From a virus: a stretch of 24,972 nt of DNA. Position numbers and translations under genes: made by a program. Where the stretch lies: the IMG/VR virus record IMGVR_UViG_3300025736_000185, positions 1-24,972 of that record; one strand, given 5' to 3'. This document shows positions 1 through 15,747 of the stretch, in pieces; position 1 is the first letter of the stretch, and each line of letters begins with the position of its first letter. The notes beneath the pieces were generated by a model. That model was not told the origin of the DNA, made no database searches, and was given only the letters and a program-made list of their open reading frames with translations.

Positions 1-575
1 CTGTTGTTGAGCTTCTTCCGCCGGGTGCCCCTAAGAGACTCTGTGCACGGATTACTGTTGTTGAGCTTTTGCCTCCACGTACCGTCTAAGTCTTCTGCGT
101 CTCCCCGGAACACATCCAGGTCCCCGTTGCTCTCGGCAAGGGCATCCGCTTTGATAGGGCATGCGCACCACGATCCACCGAGCCAGTTATTCATACCCCA
201 CACCCACCAACCCGCCAGTTGTGGGTCACACACCTCTATGCCTGTACGTAGCGTCTCCCGTAGAGAAGGCATGGCATGATACAGATAATCATGTATCATG
301 TGCAGGTCTATCTCGAGACGGGGATGGGCGGCGTACTGTACTACTTCCTCCGGATGGTATCGCACGGATCGTAGGACGTTGGCTATGTGACAGTCGTAGT
401 CGTTGAGATACCAGTTCTTTACGTTGTGCCAGTCAGGCCTGTTAAGAGATACCACAGCTGTCCCGGCGAAGGCCTCAGAAACCAGAGTTGTCTCCGGACC
501 CCAGGCCTGCCACACGAGGTCTATGACTTTTCGTTTACACCCGAAGTAGGTGTACAACTGGAGCGGCTTGCTCAT
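1..575 (-). CDS. D12-class DNA adenine N6-methyltransferase, 3' end outside window
   Basis: The minus-strand frame is open for 191 codons from an ATG at 575 to the window edge, so the C-terminal part is missing. Visible family features are FGCKRK (residues 11-16, in the place of the usual FxGGK), EAFAG (34-38, the AdoMet-binding motif I region), and NDYD followed by IANV (58-66, the NDxDxxxxN signature). A GWWVWG stretch (122-127) is, as I recall, also common in phage Dam-like enzymes. Such enzymes transfer a methyl group from AdoMet to N6 of adenine in a short DNA site, often to evade restriction. The DPPY-type catalytic motif would lie beyond the edge, so activity cannot be judged. AGGAG sits 7 bases before the start. 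The ATG overlaps the upstream gene's TGA (ATGA), so translation is probably coupled. The family call is fairly secure; the target site is unknown. Confidence 0.82.
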   Translation of the reverse strand, partial: MSKPLQLYTYFGCKRKVIDLVWQAWGPETTLVSEAFAGTAVVSLNRPDWHNVKNWYLNDYDCHIANVLRSVRYHPEEVVQYAAHPRLEIDLHMIHDYLYHAMPSLRETLRTGIEVCDPQLAGWWVWGMNNWLGGSWCACPIKADALAESNGDLDVFRGDAEDLDGTWRQKLNNSNPCTESLRGTRRKKLNN

Positions 576-4992: not shown

Positions 4993-5294
4993 AGACCCTT
5001 ATCGTAGTTGCTGTAGCTCTGACCCTGCTGGGCTGTTCGGAGGATGTCCCCATTGAAGTCTCTGTGCAAGGCCCGAGTACTGCGTCACATTACATAGACT
5101 ACAGTAACTGCAAGGTGTACGCAGAAGGGAAGCTACTGGATCTGCTCAGTTCCGGAGAGACAAAGACCATGGTGTGCTTTGAGGGTGACGACCTGGAAGC
5201 TACGTTCGTAAAAACGCACAGAACCGGCGCAAAGAAGTGTACGGATGAGGAGACCGCCACCGACGGCCTTGTCTGGCGTATTTCAGAATATTAG
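4989..5294 (+). CDS. Small lipoprotein
   Basis: A 101-aa protein with a classic lipoprotein signal: MKT, a hydrophobic core (LIVVAVALTL) and a lipobox LLGC with Cys16. After processing, the lipidated Cys is followed by SED. The mature part has four more or less regularly spaced cysteines (near 37, 58, 77 and others), so disulphides are possible. AAGGAGG lies 6 bases before the ATG, which overlaps the previous stop. In phages, small lipoproteins made early are known to block receptors or DNA entry of rival phages; others act in lysis. No lysis genes are nearby, so an exclusion role is the better guess. It ends tail to tail (4-base overlap) with the glycosyltransferase gene. Confidence 0.75.
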   Translation: MKTLIVVAVALTLLGCSEDVPIEVSVQGPSTASHYIDYSNCKVYAEGKLLDLLSSGETKTMVCFEGDDLEATFVKTHRTGAKKCTDEETATDGLVWRISEY

Positions 5295-6031
5295 AGTTTC
5301 GTCGCAACCATAGCGCCGCCGCCGATATCGAAGTGCGTCACAGGAGGTGTCATCCTTAGGGGTGGCACCTCGAAATCTACATGGTGTTGCACGATGGTGT
5401 CACAGTCCAGATAGACCTTGAGCCCCGCAGCCTGTGCGACCGCGCAGAACCCACAGTCCTCGTTCACCTCCGCTTGATGTTGCACCAATCCCTCCGGAGT
5501 TTCCTCTACGTGCTGGATAAGCATGTGCCTGAACCACGGATATTCCATGCGTTCCAAGGCCGACCGACGCACCAGCATGAACCCGCCCCCACACCAGTCG
5601 ACCTCACAGAGGCCCGTAGACTGCGTTGAAGCGAGGTTACCGGGGTTACCGGCAGCAAGAGCCCACTGACCCGCCTGATAGCACCCTGGGCTTGTACGGG
5701 CCCTGTAAGCGCCACTGACGATATCTACGTTACGCCGCAGGAGGCGCTCGATGTGCTCCGGTACCCAACTGATATCCGCATCGATGAACAAATAATGCGT
5801 GAACCTCGAGTCAAGCATCTGCCGTAGCCGTGTGGAGGCACCGTTGTTGACCCCTGTGTTGCGTGCGAGAGCCAACATTGCACTCTGAACGGCGACATAC
5901 TCTACATTGAGCCCCGCTTTTTCAGTGTCGATGAGCGATATCTTGTGCTCATCGCACTGTTCGGTGTACATTGGGGTCACGATTTTGATGCGGTGCTGCG
6001 GGTACTGTGGCCCGGTCTCTCCCTGATACAT
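5291..6031 (-). CDS. GT-A-type (GT2-like) glycosyltransferase
   Basis: A 246-aa protein. KIVTPMYTE (16-23) opens the nucleotide-sugar fold. A DAD motif at 84-86 in YLFIDADISW is the metal/sugar-nucleotide site. WCGGGFMLVRR (146-156) and NEDCGFCAVAQAAG (190-203), with a late HH pair (216-217), match the acceptor/catalytic segment typical of small GT2-like enzymes. It probably moves a sugar from a nucleotide donor to a phage or host acceptor in the cytoplasm. It is the last gene of the tail operon, 12 bases after the 392-aa fibre-like gene, with AGGAG 5 bases before the ATG. Co-transcription with fibre genes points to sugar modification of a tail protein; surface polysaccharide or DNA base modification are alternatives. 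Confidence 0.78.
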   Translation of the reverse strand: MYQGETGPQYPQHRIKIVTPMYTEQCDEHKISLIDTEKAGLNVEYVAVQSAMLALARNTGVNNGASTRLRQMLDSRFTHYLFIDADISWVPEHIERLLRRNVDIVSGAYRARTSPGCYQAGQWALAAGNPGNLASTQSTGLCEVDWCGGGFMLVRRSALERMEYPWFRHMLIQHVEETPEGLVQHQAEVNEDCGFCAVAQAAGLKVYLDCDTIVQHHVDFEVPPLRMTPPVTHFDIGGGAMVATKL

Positions 6032-6043
6032 GCTATCTCCTGG

Positions 6044-7222
6044 TTATGCGTTGACTCTCCACATCAGTGTTTGCTGTGGCCATCCCTTCGTGCCCGTCAC
6101 GCCAAAGGTAGCCCCGGCGAACTCTTGTTCACCGCTTGCGACGTTCTCCTGCAGCGTCTGAAATGCCGCTGTCCCGTTGGCTGGCACATACATGCGGCCC
6201 GGACGTACGTTGTTGTTGGCGTTGAGAAAGTCGTACACCTGGCATAAGACACTCTCAGTGCCAACGGGGGCTTGAATCTCCGCAGGCAGGCCACTGATTA
6301 TGAACCCTGTACCATCACTGTTGGCCTGTAAATCGGAGAAATGTGCGATGACGACATCTCCCTGGATGGAGTAATCGACATAAGAAAATGTCTCGACGTC
6401 CATGTAGCTGTCGGAGATAACCGCAGTGAATCCTGCACTCTTATACCTCTGGGCTGTGTCGCTCTCGCCCTGGACCACACCACCGTTCTCATCCGTGTAG
6501 AGATCCCTGAACTTACCCGCCGCTGCCACATTGTACTGTGCCCCTTCACCGTCGTATCCTGTAAGCGTGATGCCGTTCTCGGCACTGACTGCTGCCCCTG
6601 TCGTCAACTTGAGCTTGCCGTAGGACGCCTGAAGAAGGAGGTGTGCCGTGCCGCCCCCACCGTTGTTAGACCGGAGGTGGAGCTCGGCGTCATTGACCGC
6701 GTTCGTACCTGTGTAGCCGAAGGAACTATAGTCAGAGGCGTCTCCGCCGTCTATCACGAACTTGACTGGGTCGGCGATCGGGATGGGGTTGATGACGAAC
6801 TTACATCCTGCCAGCGTCGCAGCGCCTGTCAGGCCCTGCTCACCCATGAAGTACACATGCCCGTCCTCGGAGTAGACAGCGCTACCCTGCTGTGTGAGGA
6901 AGGTGTCCACGATCCCGTCTCCGAGATGTGGTATGCCTGTCACGCCAGTGTCCACGAAGTACCCTGTGTTGGAGCTGAGCGTCGTGTTGAGAGCGTCCGC
7001 TACATTCGCGATAGATGGATACGACGTGTTGGTATAGAACACACCTGAGGCACCTATCGTGCGGGACTCGTCCGGAGTCCATTTGAAGTACTCGTTGTTG
7101 TTGAACTTCCGCACCATCTTGTGCGAGTCGGTTGCGAAGCCCAGCTGTCCGGAGCGGAGGATACCGGTAAGACCGGCCTCCGTGCTCTCTGCTCGCAGTA
7201 CATCCTTATACTCGTTAGGCAT
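6044..7222 (-). CDS. Tail fibre-like/appendage protein, 392 aa
   Basis: The N-terminus (about residues 20-40, LRSGQLGFATDSHKMVRK) resembles the start of many phage fibre or neck-appendage proteins that begin with a 'GELGxATD' segment. The remainder is rich in Gly, Thr, Ser and Asn with many beta-type segments, and ends in GTKGWPQQTLMWRVNA. There are no membrane segments. AGGAG lies 7 bases before the ATG, and the start overlaps the stop of the 1011-aa gene (TAATG). It lies downstream of the tail tip gene and before the glycosyltransferase. Receptor contact or a decoration at the tail tip is likely; the exact family is not recognised. Confidence 0.6.
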   Translation of the reverse strand: MPNEYKDVLRAESTEAGLTGILRSGQLGFATDSHKMVRKFNNNEYFKWTPDESRTIGASGVFYTNTSYPSIANVADALNTTLSSNTGYFVDTGVTGIPHLGDGIVDTFLTQQGSAVYSEDGHVYFMGEQGLTGAATLAGCKFVINPIPIADPVKFVIDGGDASDYSSFGYTGTNAVNDAELHLRSNNGGGGTAHLLLQASYGKLKLTTGAAVSAENGITLTGYDGEGAQYNVAAAGKFRDLYTDENGGVVQGESDTAQRYKSAGFTAVISDSYMDVETFSYVDYSIQGDVVIAHFSDLQANSDGTGFIISGLPAEIQAPVGTESVLCQVYDFLNANNNVRPGRMYVPANGTAAFQTLQENVASGEQEFAGATFGVTGTKGWPQQTLMWRVNA

Positions 7223-10200
7223 TAGACAACTCCTGTCTCTGTTATTGTATCATCACCTTGGTCGGCACGCTCAGTTATTGTGTCAACGTTGAGCAGTTTG
7301 CCGCGCTCTATGATCAGCCCATCAGTGAGCTCGACGTAGTCATACGGTTTGAGCAGCACCTTGAGCTGGATGCGGTTCTTGTTGAGGTCGCTCGTGATCT
7401 TCGTGATGTATCCTTCGCGTGGTCCATCAGTGAGGACGGCATCCTCGACCGTTACCGGATCCAGCAGCTCCAGTTGTGTGTTCGCCACACTCATAGGCAC
7501 GCTGAAGGTAGCGATCGACTTCTGGAGAGAGCACCAGTTCACGAGCTCCCACAGGTATAGCCGTGCTGCGTTGGTTTGCCCATTGTACGCTTTGTTGCGT
7601 GTGAGGTTGTACACATCCGAGTTTCGTGGATACCACTTCAATTCTGTGTACGCCACAGGAGGTGACTGCAAACTCTTCATGCGTAGATAGCCCTGGTGGG
7701 CGCGGCCCCACAGGTCTTTGGCATCTGCGTATTCAGAGCCACTAAACCCGCCAACATACTTTCGCCAATCTTCATCCAGCGCCGGGAATGCATCTTCGTC
7801 CGTGCGTTGTATTGTGTACTGGTTATTAATCATAGGCCCGCGATGTCCGCCGGAGTCGGTGTAGTTGAACGTTACGATGTAGTTCGTGTACGCCTTATTC
7901 ATCGGTGTGTACTTCAAAGCCTTGAGTGTACCGCGTACGATGTTGCTCTCATCAAAGGCGGCTACCGTAGTGACATCATCGAGCCACGCAGTGAGACGTC
8001 GCTTACCTGTCCGAAGCGGTATGATGGAGACGTAGCTGTGCCGACACAATTCCTTCAGATAATTGTAGGAGTTCTGCACCTGTGTGACGTTGCGACTGGT
8101 GAGCCACGTCGAGCGTGCAGACTCCAGATTGTGGTAGTCAATGTCAGCCGCGTCGATGCCGTCATATGCCTCGAGGATGTGTCTGAAGACGCCGTAGACG
8201 TTCTGTGTGTTGTATTCTCCGCTGTCGGTGTCGTACTCTCCTGTTGCGGCCACGTATAGATTTTCATCCGTGAGAGGAATCTTTGAGACACCATACATGG
8301 CAAACTGTTTAATAGCCCACGACGTGGTTGTGTTCTCGCCCTCGATACCAACCATCAGCTCCACCTGCAGAGACATCGCTATGCCGTCTTGGAGAGAGTC
8401 AAGAATAGAATCTGGGATAGTCAGTCCTTCAAAGATGCGTACGGTTTCGTCGTCTGCGTCATCAATTGCGTATGTCCCATTGTGATTCGAGAAGGAATTG
8501 GTGTACTGGAAGAACATGCTATCCTCACCATTGGTCCTGTCCCCTGTGTTTGGGAAGTTATGTGTGAAGACAACCTCGGTGTAGTACTGATTTGGCAGGA
8601 AGTTCACATAGTCACCCTCCTGCGTGAAGGACCTGCTCTGCGGATACACGAGCTCAACAGGCGGAATTGCAATCCCCTCGTCGTCCTTATCAGCGATAAG
8701 GTTCCCAAGGGCGTCCACCACACTCATCCTAATCTTGAATTTGTAACCCGTCGCCTCTCTCAGAAAGGTATTTGACACGTCGATTCCCACTTGAATGCTG
8801 TCGTATGCGCCGTAGTCGTAGCCATAGTCCGCGAACGCTATCGTCCAGGTCGCGAGGTCGTAATAAGCCAGATCACCAGGGGATGCATTTATAAGGCCTG
8901 TACGGTAGCTTGTTCGACGGTCGTAGTCGATCGTATGCTCTGGATCACCTTCGCTGAAAAGACTGGCTGTAAAGCTCTGTACGGAGAACGGCACTGCGGA
9001 GACGGTGTACACCTCTGTATCTACACCCATGTTAGTCGCACTCCACAACTTGAGTGTGCCCCTGTCTGGGTCGTACGATCTCAGTATCTGGGGTGTGTCA
9101 AATTTCACAAGATCTAAACCATACGGACCATTGTAGTACAAGATTGGATAGCCGTCTTCAGTGAGGTCAATCAATTGTAGCACCTCATCGGAGAGTTGAT
9201 ATTCTACAGACACATTCGCGGCACGCACCCACCAGTATGTGTCTGCCAACGGGAAGTTCTCGTCGATCAACGGCTCTACGATGCGACTCACAGGATACGC
9301 AGCATCGCGGCCTTCCGTGATAGAGGAGATGTTATTCTCTCCAGCAGGTAGTCCGATGTTCCCATCGAGGATCAGATCCGCAAATCGCCCATCAAGGCTG
9401 CCGAACTTTGACGGGAACTGTACGCGGTTGATTCTTATACCCACGTCGGCTCTGTCTTCACTTTTAAGGGAGAACAGAAACTTGCCAACAAGATTGCTGA
9501 GATCACCCTTGAAACGGTTGTCCATTTGAAGCTGCCCAATATAGATTACAGCCCGATTGTCTGTGGGGTCCCACAGCACAAGAGGGGCTGCTCTTAGCGC
9601 GTGGTTGTACCCATACATAAACGCTGAGCTGATAGGAAGCCATTGCGGATCTTCAGATATTCCCTGAAGCTTTATTGCATTCATACTCCCGAAGACCAGA
9701 GGCAGCACACTACCCAAATAGTTGGGATCGATGTTAGGGTTGTCAGCGTCGTTTAGTGTCGATGGGGGCATGTCCCTGTGTATCTTACGGAACTGATCGT
9801 CGCACGCGAAGCGGTGCTCGGTGTCTGTAGTCGGGTTGTTGGAGACAACGCCGTTCCACAGGTAATAAAACACGCCGTCAATCACCGTGAAGACCTGTAC
9901 CGCGCGGCCCACCAGGTAGATGGAGTTGTCCTCCAAGAACTGCCAGAACTCGTCTGTGCCCTTGCTACCGAGGATGTTGAAGTCGAATCCGCTCAGGTTG
10001 CCGTAGTCTCCGGAGACGGTGACGTCGATGGTACGCTTGGGCTTACCCAAACCATCCGCGGTGATCCACCCCTCGTACCACACGGCCTCGAGGACATCAC
10101 TACCTATGCCAGCCTCACCGGTCGGATAAGTGGGTGAGCCGTCATACGAGGGTCTGCCCGTTATGAAACGGAAGACTCCACTCTGCAGGCCGTACGTAGC

Positions 10201-10257
10201 ATCCGAGAGGGCTGTCTCGTCCGTGGTTACCTGTATCGCATAGTTGATTGTTGCCAT
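7222..10257 (-). CDS. Large tail tip/hub protein, 1011 aa
   Basis: It reads through from an ATG one base after the stop of the previous gene, with GGAG about 10 bases upstream. The N-terminal 160 residues (YEGWITADGLGK, FWQFLEDNSIYLVGRAVQV, WNGVVSN) look like a tail hub/baseplate domain, followed by LGSVLPLVFGSMN (181-193), which resembles the 'PxVFG/YG' segment seen in tail tip proteins. The middle is beta-rich and Tyr/Asp-rich; a late region (YVSIIPLRTGKRRLTAWLDD) resembles hub domains of Tal/J-type proteins. By size, order and composition it should form the tail tip or central hub. No peptidase motif was seen. The call is by context. Confidence 0.55.
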   Translation of the reverse strand: MATINYAIQVTTDETALSDATYGLQSGVFRFITGRPSYDGSPTYPTGEAGIGSDVLEAVWYEGWITADGLGKPKRTIDVTVSGDYGNLSGFDFNILGSKGTDEFWQFLEDNSIYLVGRAVQVFTVIDGVFYYLWNGVVSNNPTTDTEHRFACDDQFRKIHRDMPPSTLNDADNPNIDPNYLGSVLPLVFGSMNAIKLQGISEDPQWLPISSAFMYGYNHALRAAPLVLWDPTDNRAVIYIGQLQMDNRFKGDLSNLVGKFLFSLKSEDRADVGIRINRVQFPSKFGSLDGRFADLILDGNIGLPAGENNISSITEGRDAAYPVSRIVEPLIDENFPLADTYWWVRAANVSVEYQLSDEVLQLIDLTEDGYPILYYNGPYGLDLVKFDTPQILRSYDPDRGTLKLWSATNMGVDTEVYTVSAVPFSVQSFTASLFSEGDPEHTIDYDRRTSYRTGLINASPGDLAYYDLATWTIAFADYGYDYGAYDSIQVGIDVSNTFLREATGYKFKIRMSVVDALGNLIADKDDEGIAIPPVELVYPQSRSFTQEGDYVNFLPNQYYTEVVFTHNFPNTGDRTNGEDSMFFQYTNSFSNHNGTYAIDDADDETVRIFEGLTIPDSILDSLQDGIAMSLQVELMVGIEGENTTTSWAIKQFAMYGVSKIPLTDENLYVAATGEYDTDSGEYNTQNVYGVFRHILEAYDGIDAADIDYHNLESARSTWLTSRNVTQVQNSYNYLKELCRHSYVSIIPLRTGKRRLTAWLDDVTTVAAFDESNIVRGTLKALKYTPMNKAYTNYIVTFNYTDSGGHRGPMINNQYTIQRTDEDAFPALDEDWRKYVGGFSGSEYADAKDLWGRAHQGYLRMKSLQSPPVAYTELKWYPRNSDVYNLTRNKAYNGQTNAARLYLWELVNWCSLQKSIATFSVPMSVANTQLELLDPVTVEDAVLTDGPREGYITKITSDLNKNRIQLKVLLKPYDYVELTDGLIIERGKLLNVDTITERADQGDDTITETGVV

Positions 10258-10258
10258 T

Positions 10259-10630
10259 TTACAGCTCCAGGAAATCCTTCAAGACCGTGAGGTCCCTTAC
10301 CGATATGTTCGTGCCTTCGGGCAAGGCCATGGGCTCGAACTCTACCTCGAACTCCTCGTTGACCAGCTCGTTGAACTTGGCGATGAACGCTTCTTCCTTC
10401 GTGGCGTCAGCGCCCTCTGCGTACTCGATCCCTTTGGGGCCGATGCTCGTGACCCCGAACTCCACGAACACCTTGTCCTTCACGCTGTGCGTGATATCAG
10501 TCTCTTCGCCTATCTTCGTTATGAGCTTCATCAGCCGGACGGCATCCTTCACCGGGATCGGCAGAGCAGCTATCTTGCCCAATGCTTCCAAGAACACAGG
10601 GTTCAGCGTTGTACCTCTCGTCAGTTTCAT
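10259..10630 (-). CDS. 123-aa phage tail-region protein (DUF1617-like pattern)
   Basis: A small protein with an N-terminal helical half (FLEALGKIAALPIPVKDAVRLMKLITKIGEE) and a C-terminal acidic half ending in a leucine-rich tail (VLKDFLEL). The segment with LPIPVKDAVRLMKL followed by a long helix and a late NEEFEVEFEP is like that of DUF1617-type small phage proteins, as far as I recall. GGAGG lies 5 bases before the ATG. It sits between the collagen-like fibre and the tail tip gene. It may be a chaperone or connector for one of them; the function is not established. Confidence 0.6.
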   Translation of the reverse strand: MKLTRGTTLNPVFLEALGKIAALPIPVKDAVRLMKLITKIGEETDITHSVKDKVFVEFGVTSIGPKGIEYAEGADATKEEAFIAKFNELVNEEFEVEFEPMALPEGTNISVRDLTVLKDFLEL

Positions 10631-10641
10631 ACCGACCTCCC

Positions 10642-13600
10642 TTATGGTGCTGATAGTAGTCCATTTGCATCCGCGACCACGGTTCGTGATCCTGATCCTG
10701 CCAGGCCTGGCATAGTAATCCCCAGGTCACTGCCGACCCTGAGCGCCAATACGTGGTTTCCTGCATCGTTTTTAAGTCTGAACGCGAAAGCTCCACCATG
10801 TTCACTATCAACAATTTGGACATAGTTAATTGAACCTATGGCATTCTTTGTTCCTGCATTTTGTGTAACTCTGAATGAAAGGTTTGCGAAGGCTCCGTGG
10901 GCAGTTCCGTCTCCCTTGTTGTAGATCCATATACCTTGATACGTGTCGTTCGTAGGATTGAACACTGTATCAGAATCGAGTTGCATATCCAGAAGCGTGA
11001 CAGCGGGAGTAACGCCAATACCAACGCCACCAGCAAAGGTAGCATCCTGAGAAGCATCAAGCGTAATGGCAGCCGATCCACCCGTTTTTAGGCTGAGGGT
11101 GGAACCGTCAATCGTCAGTGGCAAACGAGTGCTTCCGTCTGTTGCTATAGCACCAATAGCCACCGCACTACTGATTACTACTCTGAATGTAGGATAGGTG
11201 GTGTTTTGTGTCAACCTCGCGGTGTCAGCAATACTGAACTGTCGATTAGTAGTTCTGTTCACATGAAGCAATAATGCTATTCCCTCAGTATCCGTGTTTC
11301 CGCCCGCATAAAACTCTTGACCAGATAAGCGTATTTTTTCTACCACTTGAACAGAGTCAGACGCGGTCAATTTTGTTGTCTGAGCAGTCCCAGCAAACTG
11401 TGCACTTTTATCACCAGCAAGATATAGAGCATCACCAAGAACTCCGTTGAGCATTGTCTGAAATCCAAGGCCAGCATCTCGAACGGCGTGTGTGACATCT
11501 TCCGCCTTGTGATATATTGTCGAGGTAAGCGCACTGGCTGTAGTATCAGAATCACTATAAATTTTGAATTCAACTTTGTCATTGTCGGCTACGTTTCCTG
11601 TGCCGCGATTATGATAAAGTCTAAACATCGACGCGGTAGCAATATTTCTTGTCGATGCAGCACGAAACACATCATCACTGGTTGAAGTAATATCTAATGC
11701 ATATGAGGGCGCTTTTCCAATGCCAACATTAGCATCGAACTGAACGGTACTCGAAGTATAGTGAACCAGGTCAACGAATGACCCAGTTGAATCATTCTGT
11801 ATGACAAACTCACCGCCATCCTCTGCTCTAAGTCTCCAGCCATCTCCATTATCCTGACCAGCATCTGCAAGAAGTTGTATATATGCGGGACCTGTATTTT
11901 CTCCTATTAGAGTTAGACTGGTCGACGTTCCTGTGTGCGCGAGAGCAGCTTTTAGTACTCCAGCGTGATAGTAGTTCATCGTGCCGACTTTGTTATAAAT
12001 CTCAAATATAGATTGGCTTATGCCAAATCCAGTTATATCTCCACCTTCATCATCATAGAGTATAAACTTAGCTTTAGTTTGGTCTCCTGCAGCGTTGGCA
12101 TATGTTCCACCAAGATTGAGGGTCAAGGGAGCGGCTACTGATGACGCGACGGCTGCTCCAAGAGATAGCGTAGATCCTGCTATAAGGGCAGCGGTTAATC
12201 CAAGAGAAGCGAACTGCACAGCACTACCTGTAGTAAGTCCTTGATCTAATGCTCCTAAATAACCCCACTGAGTGGCACTTATTGTCACCGCTCCTATGTT
12301 CTCAAGCTGACCGACTTCACCAGCAGTTAGATTCTTTAGCGCGTCTGGGAACCCATCTACATCGCCTTGGACTGTTGCCGCGGCACCTACCAAATCATAC
12401 AGTCCTGCATGGTTGCCCCATCCATATGCCGTATCGTAGTGCGCGTGGTCATAGGCACTCAAGTGAGCTGCTACAGCCGTCGCGGCTGTGCCTGCTGCTT
12501 CAATCCCTGCTGTGGCCAGCGTAGCCCATGCAACGTCTGTACCGTCTGTGTGCAGGATTGTTCCTGCACCACCCACCACAAGTTCTGCCCATTTAGGCGT
12601 AGCGTTTGCATAAATGATAGATCCCTGTGACACACCAGCGGCAAGGGTGTCACTATGGGTATCACTTAGTATAGCATGCGTGCCTGCGGCTCCTGTCTCT
12701 CCCTGACTACCTGTCTCTCCCTGTATACCGGTGTCTCCCTGATCTCCTTGGGCCCCGACACCAGTGTCGCCTTGGTCTCCTGCTACACCCTGTACACCAG
12801 TATCTCCCTGGATCCCCTGGACACCCGTCTCACCTTGATCTCCTGCTACACCCTGGACACCAGTATCTCCTTGAACACCCTGGACACCAGTATCACCTTG
12901 AATACCCTGAACACCTTGGACTCCGGTGTCACCTTGGATCCCTTGGACTCCAGTATCTCCTTGAATACCCTGAACACCAGTATCTCCTTGGATCCCTTGG
13001 ACTCCAGTATCTCCTTGAGTGCCCTGTACCCCTGTATCACCTTGAGTGCCCTGAACCCCCGTGTCTCCTTGAACGCCTTGAACTCCAGTACCACCTTGGA
13101 TCCCTTGAACTCCAGTATCACCTTGGATCCCTTGTACCCCTGTATCACCTTGGATCCCTTGTACCCCTGTATCACCTTGGACCCCTTGAACTCCCGTGTC
13201 TCCCTGCGCACCAGTATTCCCCTGGGTCCCCTGTACTCCCGTGTCTCCTTGGATACCTTGGACTCCAGTATCTCCCTGTATACCAGTGTCTCCTTGTTCT
13301 CCCTGTGTACCTTGAACACCAGTGTCGCCCTGATCACCTTGAGATCCAGTGTCACCCTGTGATCCCGTCTCTCCTTGAACGCCTGTATCTCCTGTCAACC
13401 CTGTTTCACCCTGAGCACCTACAGCCCCAACGGTAATCGGTGAGTGAATGTGAGAGGCATTAACAGCACCGTCGTAATAAAATGAACACGTGACGTCGGA
13501 AGACCGCGTGGTCTGGAAGTAGGCTTTGACAACGAGTCTGTCTGTCTCCAAAAGAGATATCGCCGTAGACTGTGTCAGCAATAGTGTCGACACCTCTACA

Positions 13601-15747
13601 GTTGTGTTATTGATATCAGCAGAGGTAACGGTGAACAGAAGCGTCTCAGCTCCTGCCAGATTCCTTTTGTACCCCTTAAAAACGATGTTGCTGTCACCCG
13701 TAGCGTTATCCACTTTGGCATAGAGGTGACCCAGCCACTCCCCCGTAGGAATTTCCTGAACACCAGGCGACCCTTCTGACGTTATCCACTGATAAGTATC
13801 GGTGAAGGGAATCTCACCATCAGTGTTCTTACCTGTTGCAGTGACGATCTTCTCAGTACCGACAGGCTCAGTTCTCCGCCACTTCTGGTAATCTGCTATG
13901 GTTCCGTCAGCTACATCATGCCAGTATAGATCTAACCCTGCAGCTGCGAGGCCTGTCTCTCCCTGAGACCCTGTCTCACCCTGGACGCCTGTCTCACCCT
14001 GTGATCCAGTATCTCCCTGCGAACCTGTCTCACCCTGCGAACCTGTCTCACCTTGACTCCCAGTCTCTCCCTGTGTGCCCTGAACTCCAGTATCGCCCTG
14101 TGTACCCTGTACGCCAGTGTCTCCTTGGATCCCCTGGACTCCTGTATCTCCTTGCTCGCCCTGGACTCCTGTGTCTCCTTGGACACCTTGAACACCAGTG
14201 TCTCCCTGGATCCCCTGTACGCCAGTATCGCCTTGGACACCAGTATCGCCCTGTACGCCTTGAACGCCAGTCTCTCCCTGAACCCCTGTGTCGCCCTGTA
14301 TACCCTGTGTGCCGGTATCACCCTGCGTACCCTGCACCCCGGTGGCTCCCTGGGCTCCTGTGTCTCCCTGGACCCCTTGTGTGCCAGTCTCGCCCTGTAC
14401 TCCTGTGTCTCCCTGGATGCCCTGTACTCCGGTGTCACCTTGGATCCCTTGGACCCCGGTGTCTCCTTGTGAGCCAGTATCCCCTCGAATACCCTGTACA
14501 CCTGTGTCTCCCTGGATCCCCTGTGAGCCAGTCTCACCTTGGACACCAGTATCACCCTGGACTCCTGTGTTTCCCTGTGAGCCAGTCTCGCCCTGGTCGC
14601 CCACATCTCCTGTTTCACCCTGGGAACCTGTGTCCCCCTGTGCGCCTACACCAGTATCTCCTTGAACGCCGGTTACACCCAGGTCACCTACGTCTCCAGT
14701 CTCTCCCTGAGAGCCCGTGTCGCCCTGTGAACCTGTAACGCCCTGTGAACCCTGTGCTCCTGTCTCTCCGGTTGCGCCCGTGATGCCCACGAACGAACCG
14801 CCTGCGACACCTGTGTACCCAGTAATGTCCAGGTCGTTGAAGATCCTGAAGATTACATCAGGCTTCAGCTGTTGTATAGTGGCCCCATCGCCCGCATTCA
14901 CGTAGAAGCTGACCCCGTAATACTGGCCATGTGCCACGGCCGGGGTGACGACGCTCGGGTCGAACCTGAATGTGATGCCCGGATTGCCGTTGTAGTTGTC
15001 TGTCGTGGAGAAGTCGACCATATCCGCAGTCCACAGATCCGTGCCCACCTTGCTCCAGCGTTCCTCAGACTCCGTAGGCGCTACGGTCCTGTAGACCGAG
15101 GCCGTGGATGTGACTATGCCAGTCAGACCGCGGAACTCAATGGAGCCCTCTGCGGTGCTGTCAGAGTTTACGTCGACCACCGGTATCGGGTCCAACTCAA
15201 CGCGCTTCTCATAGATATCCAGAGCCATCGAAGCCGTCTTGGAGCCTTCCGGGGAGTAGGGTGTCACGGTGTAGTAGTCATCGGGGAGGACGGATGCAGG
15301 GGCTCCTGTGATGCCCGTGTCGTCCAACCCGTTATAGATCTCAGCCACGACGTCCGGACGATACTGAGCCACGGCGGCATTGTCTTGAGCGTTGGCGTAG
15401 AAGGAGATCCCGTAGTACTGCCCGTGCTCGACGCCCGTTACACCGGACGGATCGAAGCGCCATGACAGGTTCTGATTGCCTGAGTAGACTTCCTCGGATG
15501 AGAAGTCAAGGACGGTGCCTGTGTAGAAGTCGGGGCCTATCTGGCTCCAGCGTTCCTCAACGGATGTAGGTGCGACCACACGGTAAACAGTGGCCGTAGC
15601 ATCGGCCAGACCGGTAACGCCAGACATCTTGAACTCGATGTCTCCCTCGACGGTCGAGTCCTGGTTGAGACGCACGACCGGGGTGTCGGTTGCATTGAGG
15701 TTGTTGCCGTATACACTGTACGAAATGGGCACTATCTTGGATGCCAT
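10642..15747 (-). CDS. Collagen-like tail fibre protein, 1701 aa
   Basis: Regions in order: two related N-terminal domains (about 20-165 and 186-320); collagen-like Gly-X-Y block 1 (about 321-600); a globular beta-rich insert (601-776); Gly-X-Y block 2 (about 777-1022); and a 680-residue C-terminal part. That part has two VGIG..P...LD motifs (FDANVGIGKAPSYALD, AGGVGIGVTPAVTLLD) and the end RTVVADANGLLSAP. The triplets are mostly GVQ, GIQ, GDT, GET and GSQ with almost no proline. Blocks of this type form trimeric triple helices in phage fibres. There is no C-terminal S74-type chaperone peptidase. GAGGAG lies 7 bases before the ATG. Receptor binding at the tail is likely. Confidence 0.85.
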   Translation of the reverse strand: MASKIVPISYSVYGNNLNATDTPVVRLNQDSTVEGDIEFKMSGVTGLADATATVYRVVAPTSVEERWSQIGPDFYTGTVLDFSSEEVYSGNQNLSWRFDPSGVTGVEHGQYYGISFYANAQDNAAVAQYRPDVVAEIYNGLDDTGITGAPASVLPDDYYTVTPYSPEGSKTASMALDIYEKRVELDPIPVVDVNSDSTAEGSIEFRGLTGIVTSTASVYRTVAPTESEERWSKVGTDLWTADMVDFSTTDNYNGNPGITFRFDPSVVTPAVAHGQYYGVSFYVNAGDGATIQQLKPDVIFRIFNDLDITGYTGVAGGSFVGITGATGETGAQGSQGVTGSQGDTGSQGETGDVGDLGVTGVQGDTGVGAQGDTGSQGETGDVGDQGETGSQGNTGVQGDTGVQGETGSQGIQGDTGVQGIRGDTGSQGDTGVQGIQGDTGVQGIQGDTGVQGETGTQGVQGDTGAQGATGVQGTQGDTGTQGIQGDTGVQGETGVQGVQGDTGVQGDTGVQGIQGDTGVQGVQGDTGVQGEQGDTGVQGIQGDTGVQGTQGDTGVQGTQGETGSQGETGSQGETGSQGDTGSQGETGVQGETGSQGETGLAAAGLDLYWHDVADGTIADYQKWRRTEPVGTEKIVTATGKNTDGEIPFTDTYQWITSEGSPGVQEIPTGEWLGHLYAKVDNATGDSNIVFKGYKRNLAGAETLLFTVTSADINNTTVEVSTLLLTQSTAISLLETDRLVVKAYFQTTRSSDVTCSFYYDGAVNASHIHSPITVGAVGAQGETGLTGDTGVQGETGSQGDTGSQGDQGDTGVQGTQGEQGDTGIQGDTGVQGIQGDTGVQGTQGNTGAQGDTGVQGVQGDTGVQGIQGDTGVQGIQGDTGVQGIQGGTGVQGVQGDTGVQGTQGDTGVQGTQGDTGVQGIQGDTGVQGIQGDTGVQGIQGDTGVQGVQGIQGDTGVQGVQGDTGVQGVAGDQGETGVQGIQGDTGVQGVAGDQGDTGVGAQGDQGDTGIQGETGSQGETGAAGTHAILSDTHSDTLAAGVSQGSIIYANATPKWAELVVGGAGTILHTDGTDVAWATLATAGIEAAGTAATAVAAHLSAYDHAHYDTAYGWGNHAGLYDLVGAAATVQGDVDGFPDALKNLTAGEVGQLENIGAVTISATQWGYLGALDQGLTTGSAVQFASLGLTAALIAGSTLSLGAAVASSVAAPLTLNLGGTYANAAGDQTKAKFILYDDEGGDITGFGISQSIFEIYNKVGTMNYYHAGVLKAALAHTGTSTSLTLIGENTGPAYIQLLADAGQDNGDGWRLRAEDGGEFVIQNDSTGSFVDLVHYTSSTVQFDANVGIGKAPSYALDITSTSDDVFRAASTRNIATASMFRLYHNRGTGNVADNDKVEFKIYSDSDTTASALTSTIYHKAEDVTHAVRDAGLGFQTMLNGVLGDALYLAGDKSAQFAGTAQTTKLTASDSVQVVEKIRLSGQEFYAGGNTDTEGIALLLHVNRTTNRQFSIADTARLTQNTTYPTFRVVISSAVAIGAIATDGSTRLPLTIDGSTLSLKTGGSAAITLDASQDATFAGGVGIGVTPAVTLLDMQLDSDTVFNPTNDTYQGIWIYNKGDGTAHGAFANLSFRVTQNAGTKNAIGSINYVQIVDSEHGGAFAFRLKNDAGNHVLALRVGSDLGITMPGLAGSGSRTVVADANGLLSAP
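12682..13419 (-). repeat. Collagen-like repeat block 2
   Basis: About 80 Gly-X-Y triplets, mainly in an 18-base unit that encodes GVQGIQ/GDT or GVQGVQ/GDT. Many copies are near-identical at DNA level, so copy number could change by recombination or slippage. A shortened step GV-GAQ lies near the C-terminal end of the block. Confidence 0.85.
13948..14787 (-). repeat. Collagen-like repeat block 1
   Basis: About 93 Gly-X-Y triplets beginning after the second N-terminal domain. They are more varied than in block 2, with more GSQ, GET and GAQ. One GV-GAQ shortened step at residues 366-370 breaks the register near its N-terminal end, the mirror position of the one in block 2. Confidence 0.85.

What the first reader, a model, noticed from the sequence alone, without database searches (positions are those of the whole stretch)
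5291..15747. Collagen-like fibre with Thr in the Y position plus a co-transcribed glycosyltransferase: a possible sugar-coated triple helix
The 1701-aa fibre has two Gly-X-Y blocks in which GDT and GET triplets recur constantly, so Thr occupies many Y positions. Proline is nearly absent, so the triple helix lacks its usual stabiliser. The same operon ends in a 246-aa GT-A-type glycosyltransferase with a DAD motif. Thr glycosylation of bacterial collagen-like proteins such as BclA is established, and phage-encoded glycosyltransferases are known to modify virion proteins in some phages. Linking this enzyme with the fibre is inference: the acceptor might be another tail protein or a host glycan.
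Basis: partly seen in the sequence, partly recalled or inferred. Interest (0 to 1): 0.65.

Follow-up and report, generated by a model that had tools for sequence, protein, structure and literature searches.

The report
Phage tail-fibre operon with sugar-adding enzyme
A virus of bacteria carries a very long collagen-like tail fibre and, in the same run of tail genes, an intact sugar-adding enzyme; related viruses keep the two together, so the enzyme probably decorates a tail protein, but whether the sugar lands on the collagen part is unproven and the fibre's composition by itself is ordinary.

Summary
The 1701-aa fibre has two Gly-X-Y blocks (about 174 triplets) with no proline. The 246-aa enzyme has a GT-A fold with its catalytic positions intact and is the last gene of a tightly packed tail operon. 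The proposed link is partly supported. For it: a 37-kb relative (about 50% identical) keeps fibre, next tail genes and enzyme in order; six of seven members of the enzyme's own clade lie in genomes with Thr-rich Gly-X-Y proteins (three of them found through a Gly-X-Y scan, so biased); Gly-X-Y records carry the enzyme family more often than controls (12/82 vs 2/98). Against it: Thr/Gln at Y is normal for phage and bacterial collagens and needs no sugar; Thr content does not differ between records with and without the enzyme; 0/80 loci of the wider family have collagen nearby; the enzyme directly follows a different, non-collagen fibre-like gene. Best reading: a tail-module glycosyltransferase acting on a virion tail protein, the Gly-X-Y fibre or adjacent P0002. 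Host-glycan modification is a real rival; DNA modification is unlikely.

The parts
5291..6031 (-). 246-aa GT-A-type glycosyltransferase, last gene of the tail operon
   Evidence: phrog_1574 E=1.8e-23, PF13506 marginal 21.8 vs 21.7 bits; AlphaFold2 and Foldseek; no membrane segment
5774..5782 (-). DAD motif (D84-A85-D86), metal and nucleotide-sugar site
   Evidence: D84 and D86 invariant in 57 family members
5456..5461 (-). E191-D192, probable catalytic base region
   Evidence: D192 invariant, E191 nearly invariant
5384..5386 (-). H216, probable metal/nucleotide ligand
   Evidence: invariant in 57 members; role inferred
6044..7222 (-). P0002, 392-aa fibre-like tail protein directly before the enzyme (12-base gap); alternative acceptor
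   Evidence: 48% identical homolog directly before the enzyme in G062; no Pfam family
7222..10257 (-). 1011-aa hub-like tail protein
   Evidence: 34% identical homolog in G062; function from position only
10259..10630 (-). 123-aa protein of the operon
   Evidence: phrog_1401, unknown function, E=9e-4
10642..15747 (-). 1701-aa collagen-like tail fibre
   Evidence: PF01391 E=6.7e-78, many tail-fibre PHROGs
15304..15747 (-). fibre N-terminal domain (aa 1-148), shared with fibres of three other phages
   Evidence: blastp and alignment; four records in the viral collection
13945..14787 (-). Gly-X-Y block 1 (aa 321-601)
   Evidence: triplet counts
13429..13944 (-). non-collagen domain between the blocks (aa 602-773)
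   Evidence: 35-40% identical domains in L182, L350 and L168 fibres
12676..13428 (-). Gly-X-Y block 2 (aa 774-1024)
   Evidence: triplet counts

Best explanation
The 246-aa protein is a soluble, probably metal-dependent GT-A glycosyltransferase made with the tail proteins. In the host cytoplasm it most likely transfers a sugar from a host nucleotide-sugar onto a virion tail protein before or during tail assembly. The two candidate acceptors are the Thr-rich Gly-X-Y fibre and the adjacent fibre-like protein P0002. Shown: fold, intact catalytic positions, tail-operon position, conserved synteny, clade-level association with collagen-fibre phages. Inferred: activity, donor, acceptor and purpose. 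Within this reading I give the Gly-X-Y threonines about 0.2 in absolute terms.
For: Conserved catalytic residues and GT-A model. Only convincing profile match among solved structures is STIV A197 (1.9e-8), an essential viral enzyme suspected of glycosylating the viral coat protein (PMC10551542). Enzyme is the last gene of the tail operon and this order is kept at about 50% identity in G062. In its clade it directly follows a fibre or tail gene in the window, G062, L348, L349 and L350. Six of seven clade members are in collagen-bearing records. Family is commoner in Gly-X-Y records than in controls, 12/82 vs 2/98, p=0.0017.
Against: No activity, donor or acceptor is shown. The wider family sits in mixed places, including replication regions, so it has no single role. 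Three of the six collagen-bearing clade members were found through a Gly-X-Y scan, and habitat was not matched in the controls.
Confidence: 0.5

Rival explanations
1. The reader's specific version, nested inside the best explanation: the enzyme O-glycosylates Thr at the Y position of the Gly-X-Y blocks and so stabilises or shields a proline-free triple helix.
For: Enzyme clade and Thr-rich collagen fibres go together; Y stays Thr/Gln in G062 while X has changed; fold matches include collagen glycosyltransferases LH3 and mimivirus R699 (R699 activity: PMC9546862).
Against: Thr fraction at Y does not differ between enzyme-positive and enzyme-negative records (0.33 vs 0.24, p=0.31; clade vs enzyme-negative p=0.07). 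Thr/Gln at Y is ordinary. 0 of 80 family loci have collagen nearby. LH3/R699 matches are at GT-A-fold level only and act on hydroxylysine, not Thr.
Confidence: 0.2
2. The enzyme modifies a host surface glycan, for instance to block superinfection or change the receptor after infection.
For: This role is proposed for glycosyltransferases in phage host-recognition regions (PMC7029224) and for those of freshwater actinophages (PMC10202952). Bacterial relatives are found, mostly in Bradyrhizobium.
Against: No membrane segment (maximum 19-residue hydropathy 1.06), and no GtrA/GtrB-like partner was noticed in the window, twin contig or G062. The gene is locked to the tail module rather than to an early or lysogeny region.
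Confidence: 0.25
3. The enzyme glycosylates phage DNA to protect it from nucleases.
For: Phage glycosyltransferases that hypermodify DNA exist (cited in PMC12619734), and family members elsewhere lie near replication genes.
Against: No thymidylate-synthase-like hydroxymethylase (PF00303) in nine records of the clade, though all are or may be partial. Tail-operon position. Best-known T4 DNA glucosyltransferases are GT-B (own knowledge), this is GT-A.
Confidence: 0.05
4. The enzyme is an accessory cargo gene with no link to the fibre; its place at the end of the tail operon is only a common landing site, and collagen co-occurrence reflects shared aquatic phage pools.
For: The wider family is scattered across many genome positions; in some Gly-X-Y records the enzyme is far from the collagen gene.
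Against: Synteny is kept with G062 at about 50% identity and catalytic residues are intact; unrelated phages L349 and L350 also have it beside tail or Gly-X-Y genes.
Confidence: 0.18

Closest known systems
STIV A197 (PDB 2c0n), GT-A glycosyltransferase of an archaeal virus
   Same: Only convincing sequence-profile match in the PDB (1.9e-8) and best fold match (2.5e-9); small single-domain viral GT-A enzyme
   Different: Different virus type (no tail); its presumed target is a coat protein; donor and acceptor of A197 are themselves unproven (PMC10551542)
Mimivirus R699 and human LH3, collagen glucosyltransferases
   Same: GT-A fold matches 1.5e-7 to 3e-7; virus-encoded collagen modification in the case of R699 (PMC9546862)
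   Different: No sequence-profile match; they act on galactosyl-hydroxylysine, whereas the fibre blocks hold no lysine
Mycobacteriophage virion-protein glycosyltransferases (Che8 and relatives)
   Same: Phage-encoded enzymes with glycans on capsid and tail-tube proteins (Freeman et al. 2023, as cited in PMC11256854 and PMC12619734)
   Different: Targets are capsid and tail tube, not a collagen fibre; no sequence match to mycobacteriophage records
EPclA/EPclB collagen-like side-tail proteins of E. coli prophages
   Same: Trimeric phage fibres with Gly-X-Y stalks between globular domains; Gln and Thr favoured at Y (PMC3368898)
   Different: About 48% Pro and many charged residues at X and Lys/Arg at Y; no glycan on the recombinant protein
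BclA of the Bacillus anthracis exosporium
   Same: Thr-rich Gly-X-Y region; glycosylation reported (PMC8968730)
   Different: Cellular spore protein with Gly-Pro-Thr triplets (own knowledge); not a phage fibre; here proline is absent and glycosylation is not shown

Membership tests
Collagen-like phage tail fibre (Pfam PF01391) | Long Gly-X-Y tracts over the family cut-off | tested here: met
   256.8 bits vs cut-off 27.2; 78-triplet run vs 8 in shuffles
Collagen-like phage tail fibre (Pfam PF01391) | Gene in a tail module between tape measure and hub-like genes | tested here: met
Collagen-like phage tail fibre (Pfam PF01391) | Forms a trimeric triple helix | not testable with these tools
   Needs circular dichroism or electron microscopy
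GT-A glycosyltransferase (phrog_1574-type) | GT-A fold | tested here: met
   AlphaFold2 pTM 0.80; solved GT-A enzymes dominate the fold matches
GT-A glycosyltransferase (phrog_1574-type) | DxD metal site and downstream acidic and His residues intact | tested here: met
   D84, D86, D192, H216 invariant in 57 members
GT-A glycosyltransferase (phrog_1574-type) | Sugar transfer activity | not testable with these tools
   Needs an enzyme assay
Phage virion-protein glycosylation system | Phage-encoded transferase linked to structural genes | tested here: met
   Tail operon position and synteny
Phage virion-protein glycosylation system | Glycan on a virion protein | not testable with these tools
   Needs mass spectrometry of virions
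Collagen-Thr glycosylation (BclA-like) | Higher Thr at Y when the enzyme is present | tested here: not met
   Median 0.33 vs 0.24, p=0.31; clade only, p=0.07
Collagen glycosyltransferase (LH3/R699/COLGALT) | Sequence homology to the collagen enzymes | tested here: not met
   Profile search of PDB chains finds A197, GlfT2 and Mnn9 only
Phage DNA-glycosylation system | Partner base-hydroxymethylating enzyme of the thymidylate-synthase type | tested here: inconclusive
   No PF00303 in nine clade records, but the records are or may be partial
GtrABC-type O-antigen conversion | Membrane segments / lipid-carrier partners | tested here: not met
   No membrane segment in the enzyme; no such partners noticed in the window ORFs

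The most novel reading that the evidence does not exclude
A phage-encoded, single-domain GT-A enzyme that O-glycosylates threonine at the Y position of a proline-free collagen-like tail fibre: a minimal prokaryotic collagen-glycosylation pair that travels between unrelated phages.
Probability: 0.2. Interest if true: 0.7.

Novelty: new member of a known kind. Interest (0 to 1): 0.42.

Why it matters
If the enzyme glycosylates the fibre, it would be a simple route to a glycosylated, proline-free triple helix made in bacteria, and a new way for phages to tune adsorption or shielding. Even if not, the analysis names a small enzyme clade tied to tail-fibre genes, so the acceptor question becomes testable with one virion proteomics run on a related isolate. 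The fibre composition alone is ordinary.

Tried and rejected
P0001, P0002 and P0003 as single queries find only the near-identical twin contig IMGVR_UViG_3300005935_000091, which is not independent evidence. P0003 has no match in 50,697 phage records. phmmer of the enzyme against the PDB gave only noise. AlphaFold of P0002 failed (pLDDT 30), so its fold was not searched. Recent repeat expansion as the cause of the Thr pattern is rejected by codon diversity. Thr content as a marker of enzyme presence is not supported. A 2OG oxygenase (PF13759) partner in the clade was sought and not found. Other sugar genes were looked for by eye in the ORFs of the twin contig and G062 without finding any.

Full report
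What is there. The window is a 24,972-base fragment of a tailed-phage genome. Its minus strand runs major capsid protein, tail genes, tape measure, a 258-aa protein, the 1701-aa fibre, a 123-aa protein, a 1011-aa hub-like protein, P0002 (392 aa) and the 246-aa enzyme. From tape measure to enzyme the gaps are -1, 19, 11, 1, -1 and 12 bases, so one transcript is likely; promoter and terminator scans add nothing above chance.

The fibre. Gly-X-Y blocks lie at aa 321-601 and 774-1024. The longest run is 78 triplets against at most 8 in shuffles, and Pfam Collagen scores 257 bits. Y is Gln 55%, Thr 39%; X is mostly Asp, Val, Glu and Ile; there is no proline. Synonymous codons are well mixed (41 GDT triplets in 17 DNA forms), so the protein pattern is old and maintained. 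It is not rare: of 82 other Gly-X-Y loci found with a GDTGVQG pattern, 20 have 1% proline-containing triplets or less and 34 have Thr at Y of 38% or more (the pattern itself favours such sequences). Published tables give Gram-positive collagens 48% Thr and 18% Gln at Y, and a phage collagen (proline-rich) melts at 42 C without glycans (PMC3368898). Thr at Y therefore does not by itself point to sugar.

The enzyme. It matches phrog_1574 (no assigned function) and, marginally, PF13506. Across 57 family members D84, D86, D192 and H216 are invariant and R57 and E191 nearly so. AlphaFold2 gives a confident GT-A core. The best fold match is STIV A197, followed by human LH3, mimivirus R699, Mnn9, GalNAc-T2 and PBCV-1 capsid enzymes. 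By sequence profile only A197 (1.9e-8) is convincing. A197 is essential and thought to act on the STIV coat protein, donor and acceptor unproven (PMC10551542). The collagen-enzyme matches are suggestive but only at the level of the GT-A fold.

Relatives. A colinear phage, G062 (IMGVR_UViG_3300009168_000077), keeps fibre N-terminus (51%), hub (34%), P0002 (48%) and enzyme (49%) in order. Its main fibre has 191 triplets with Thr 90 and Gln 86 at Y, while X has shifted from Asp/Val to Ala/Leu. A tree of 122 enzymes puts the window in a clade of seven (support 100/96) with G062, L342, L348, L349, L350 and L351; the place of L342, a long branch, is unsure. Six of seven lie in records with Gly-X-Y proteins. 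Three of these (G062, L350, L342) were first found through the Gly-X-Y scan, so they are biased; of the independently found ones, L349 and L351 are positive and L348 (22 kb, partial) is negative. L354, a second contig with the L351 enzyme, is also negative (24.7 kb). Outside the clade, 0 of 42 whole records of the first set pass the Pfam cut-off, and in the second set only two jumbo genomes do besides clade members. The fibre's N-terminal domain was found in four records of the viral collection, the twin contig included; all four have Gly-X-Y and a member of the enzyme family.

Co-occurrence. Searching whole records with the family profile, 12 of 82 Gly-X-Y records and 2 of 98 controls carry the enzyme family (twin and one 16-bit match left out): Fisher p=0.0017, or 3.0 vs 0.37 per megabase; without the two clade relatives first found there (L134, L190), p=0.006. 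One further control locus (L304) had a 62-bit match locally but was not in the whole-record scan. Habitat was not matched, and in some records (L398, L399) the enzyme lies among replication or other non-tail genes far from the collagen gene, so part of the signal is not functional. Thr content does not differ between enzyme-positive and enzyme-negative collagens (p=0.31).

Neighbour of the enzyme. In this clade the enzyme usually directly follows a fibre or tail gene: P0002 (window, G062), a 698-aa tail protein (L348), a 387-aa ORF with a short Gly-X-Y stretch (L349), a 266-aa putative fibre ORF (L350); a bacterial relative at 34% identity also follows a fibre-like ORF in a Chitinispirillia contig. 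This ties it to the tail module more firmly than to collagen as such. In the wider family the upstream gene is mixed: oxygenase/endonuclease-like proteins, single-strand binding protein, tail fibre, cytidyltransferase.

Mechanism. Most likely the enzyme is made with the tail proteins and adds a sugar from a host nucleotide-sugar to a tail protein in the cytoplasm. It has no membrane segment, and no lipid-carrier partners were noticed, which counts against classical O-antigen conversion but does not exclude surface-glycan modification. No hydroxymethylase-type gene was found, against DNA glycosylation (partial records). Activity, donor, acceptor and purpose are all inferred.

Verdict. Observation confirmed, with the correction that Gln outnumbers Thr at Y. 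Interpretation partly supported: a lineage-level link between this enzyme clade and collagen-fibre phages, but no evidence that Gly-X-Y threonines are the acceptor.

Noticed in passing
L141:868-6776 (IMGVR_UViG_3300030708_003833): A 1548-aa Gly-X-Y fibre, a 2OG-Fe(II) oxygenase (PF13759, 7e-28) and a member of the enzyme family follow each other on one strand; a possible hydroxylase-plus-glycosyltransferase cassette beside a collagen fibre.
   Followed up: partly
L412:2-2239 (Chitinispirillia MAG WRCH01000046.1): A 34% identical enzyme follows a fibre-like ORF at a contig end, next to bacterial genes; looks like the edge of a prophage.
   Followed up: partly
L413-L491 (mostly Bradyrhizobium): Distant members of the enzyme family are widespread in Bradyrhizobium genomes, none with a Gly-X-Y ORF in the fetched region.
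   Followed up: no
G242 and G246 (518 kb and 453 kb viral records): Two jumbo viral genomes carry dozens of collagen-repeat matches plus a member of the enzyme family.
   Followed up: no
L346:13959-16444 (G062): Three small methyltransferase-like genes and an HNH endonuclease gene near the right end of the colinear relative.
   Followed up: no
L351:7755-8528: A second, 257-aa glycosyltransferase-like ORF lies between the head genes and the clade enzyme in this record.
   Followed up: no
window 3-575: Partial D12-type adenine methyltransferase running off the left end of the window, weak Pfam score of 14.7 bits.
   Followed up: no
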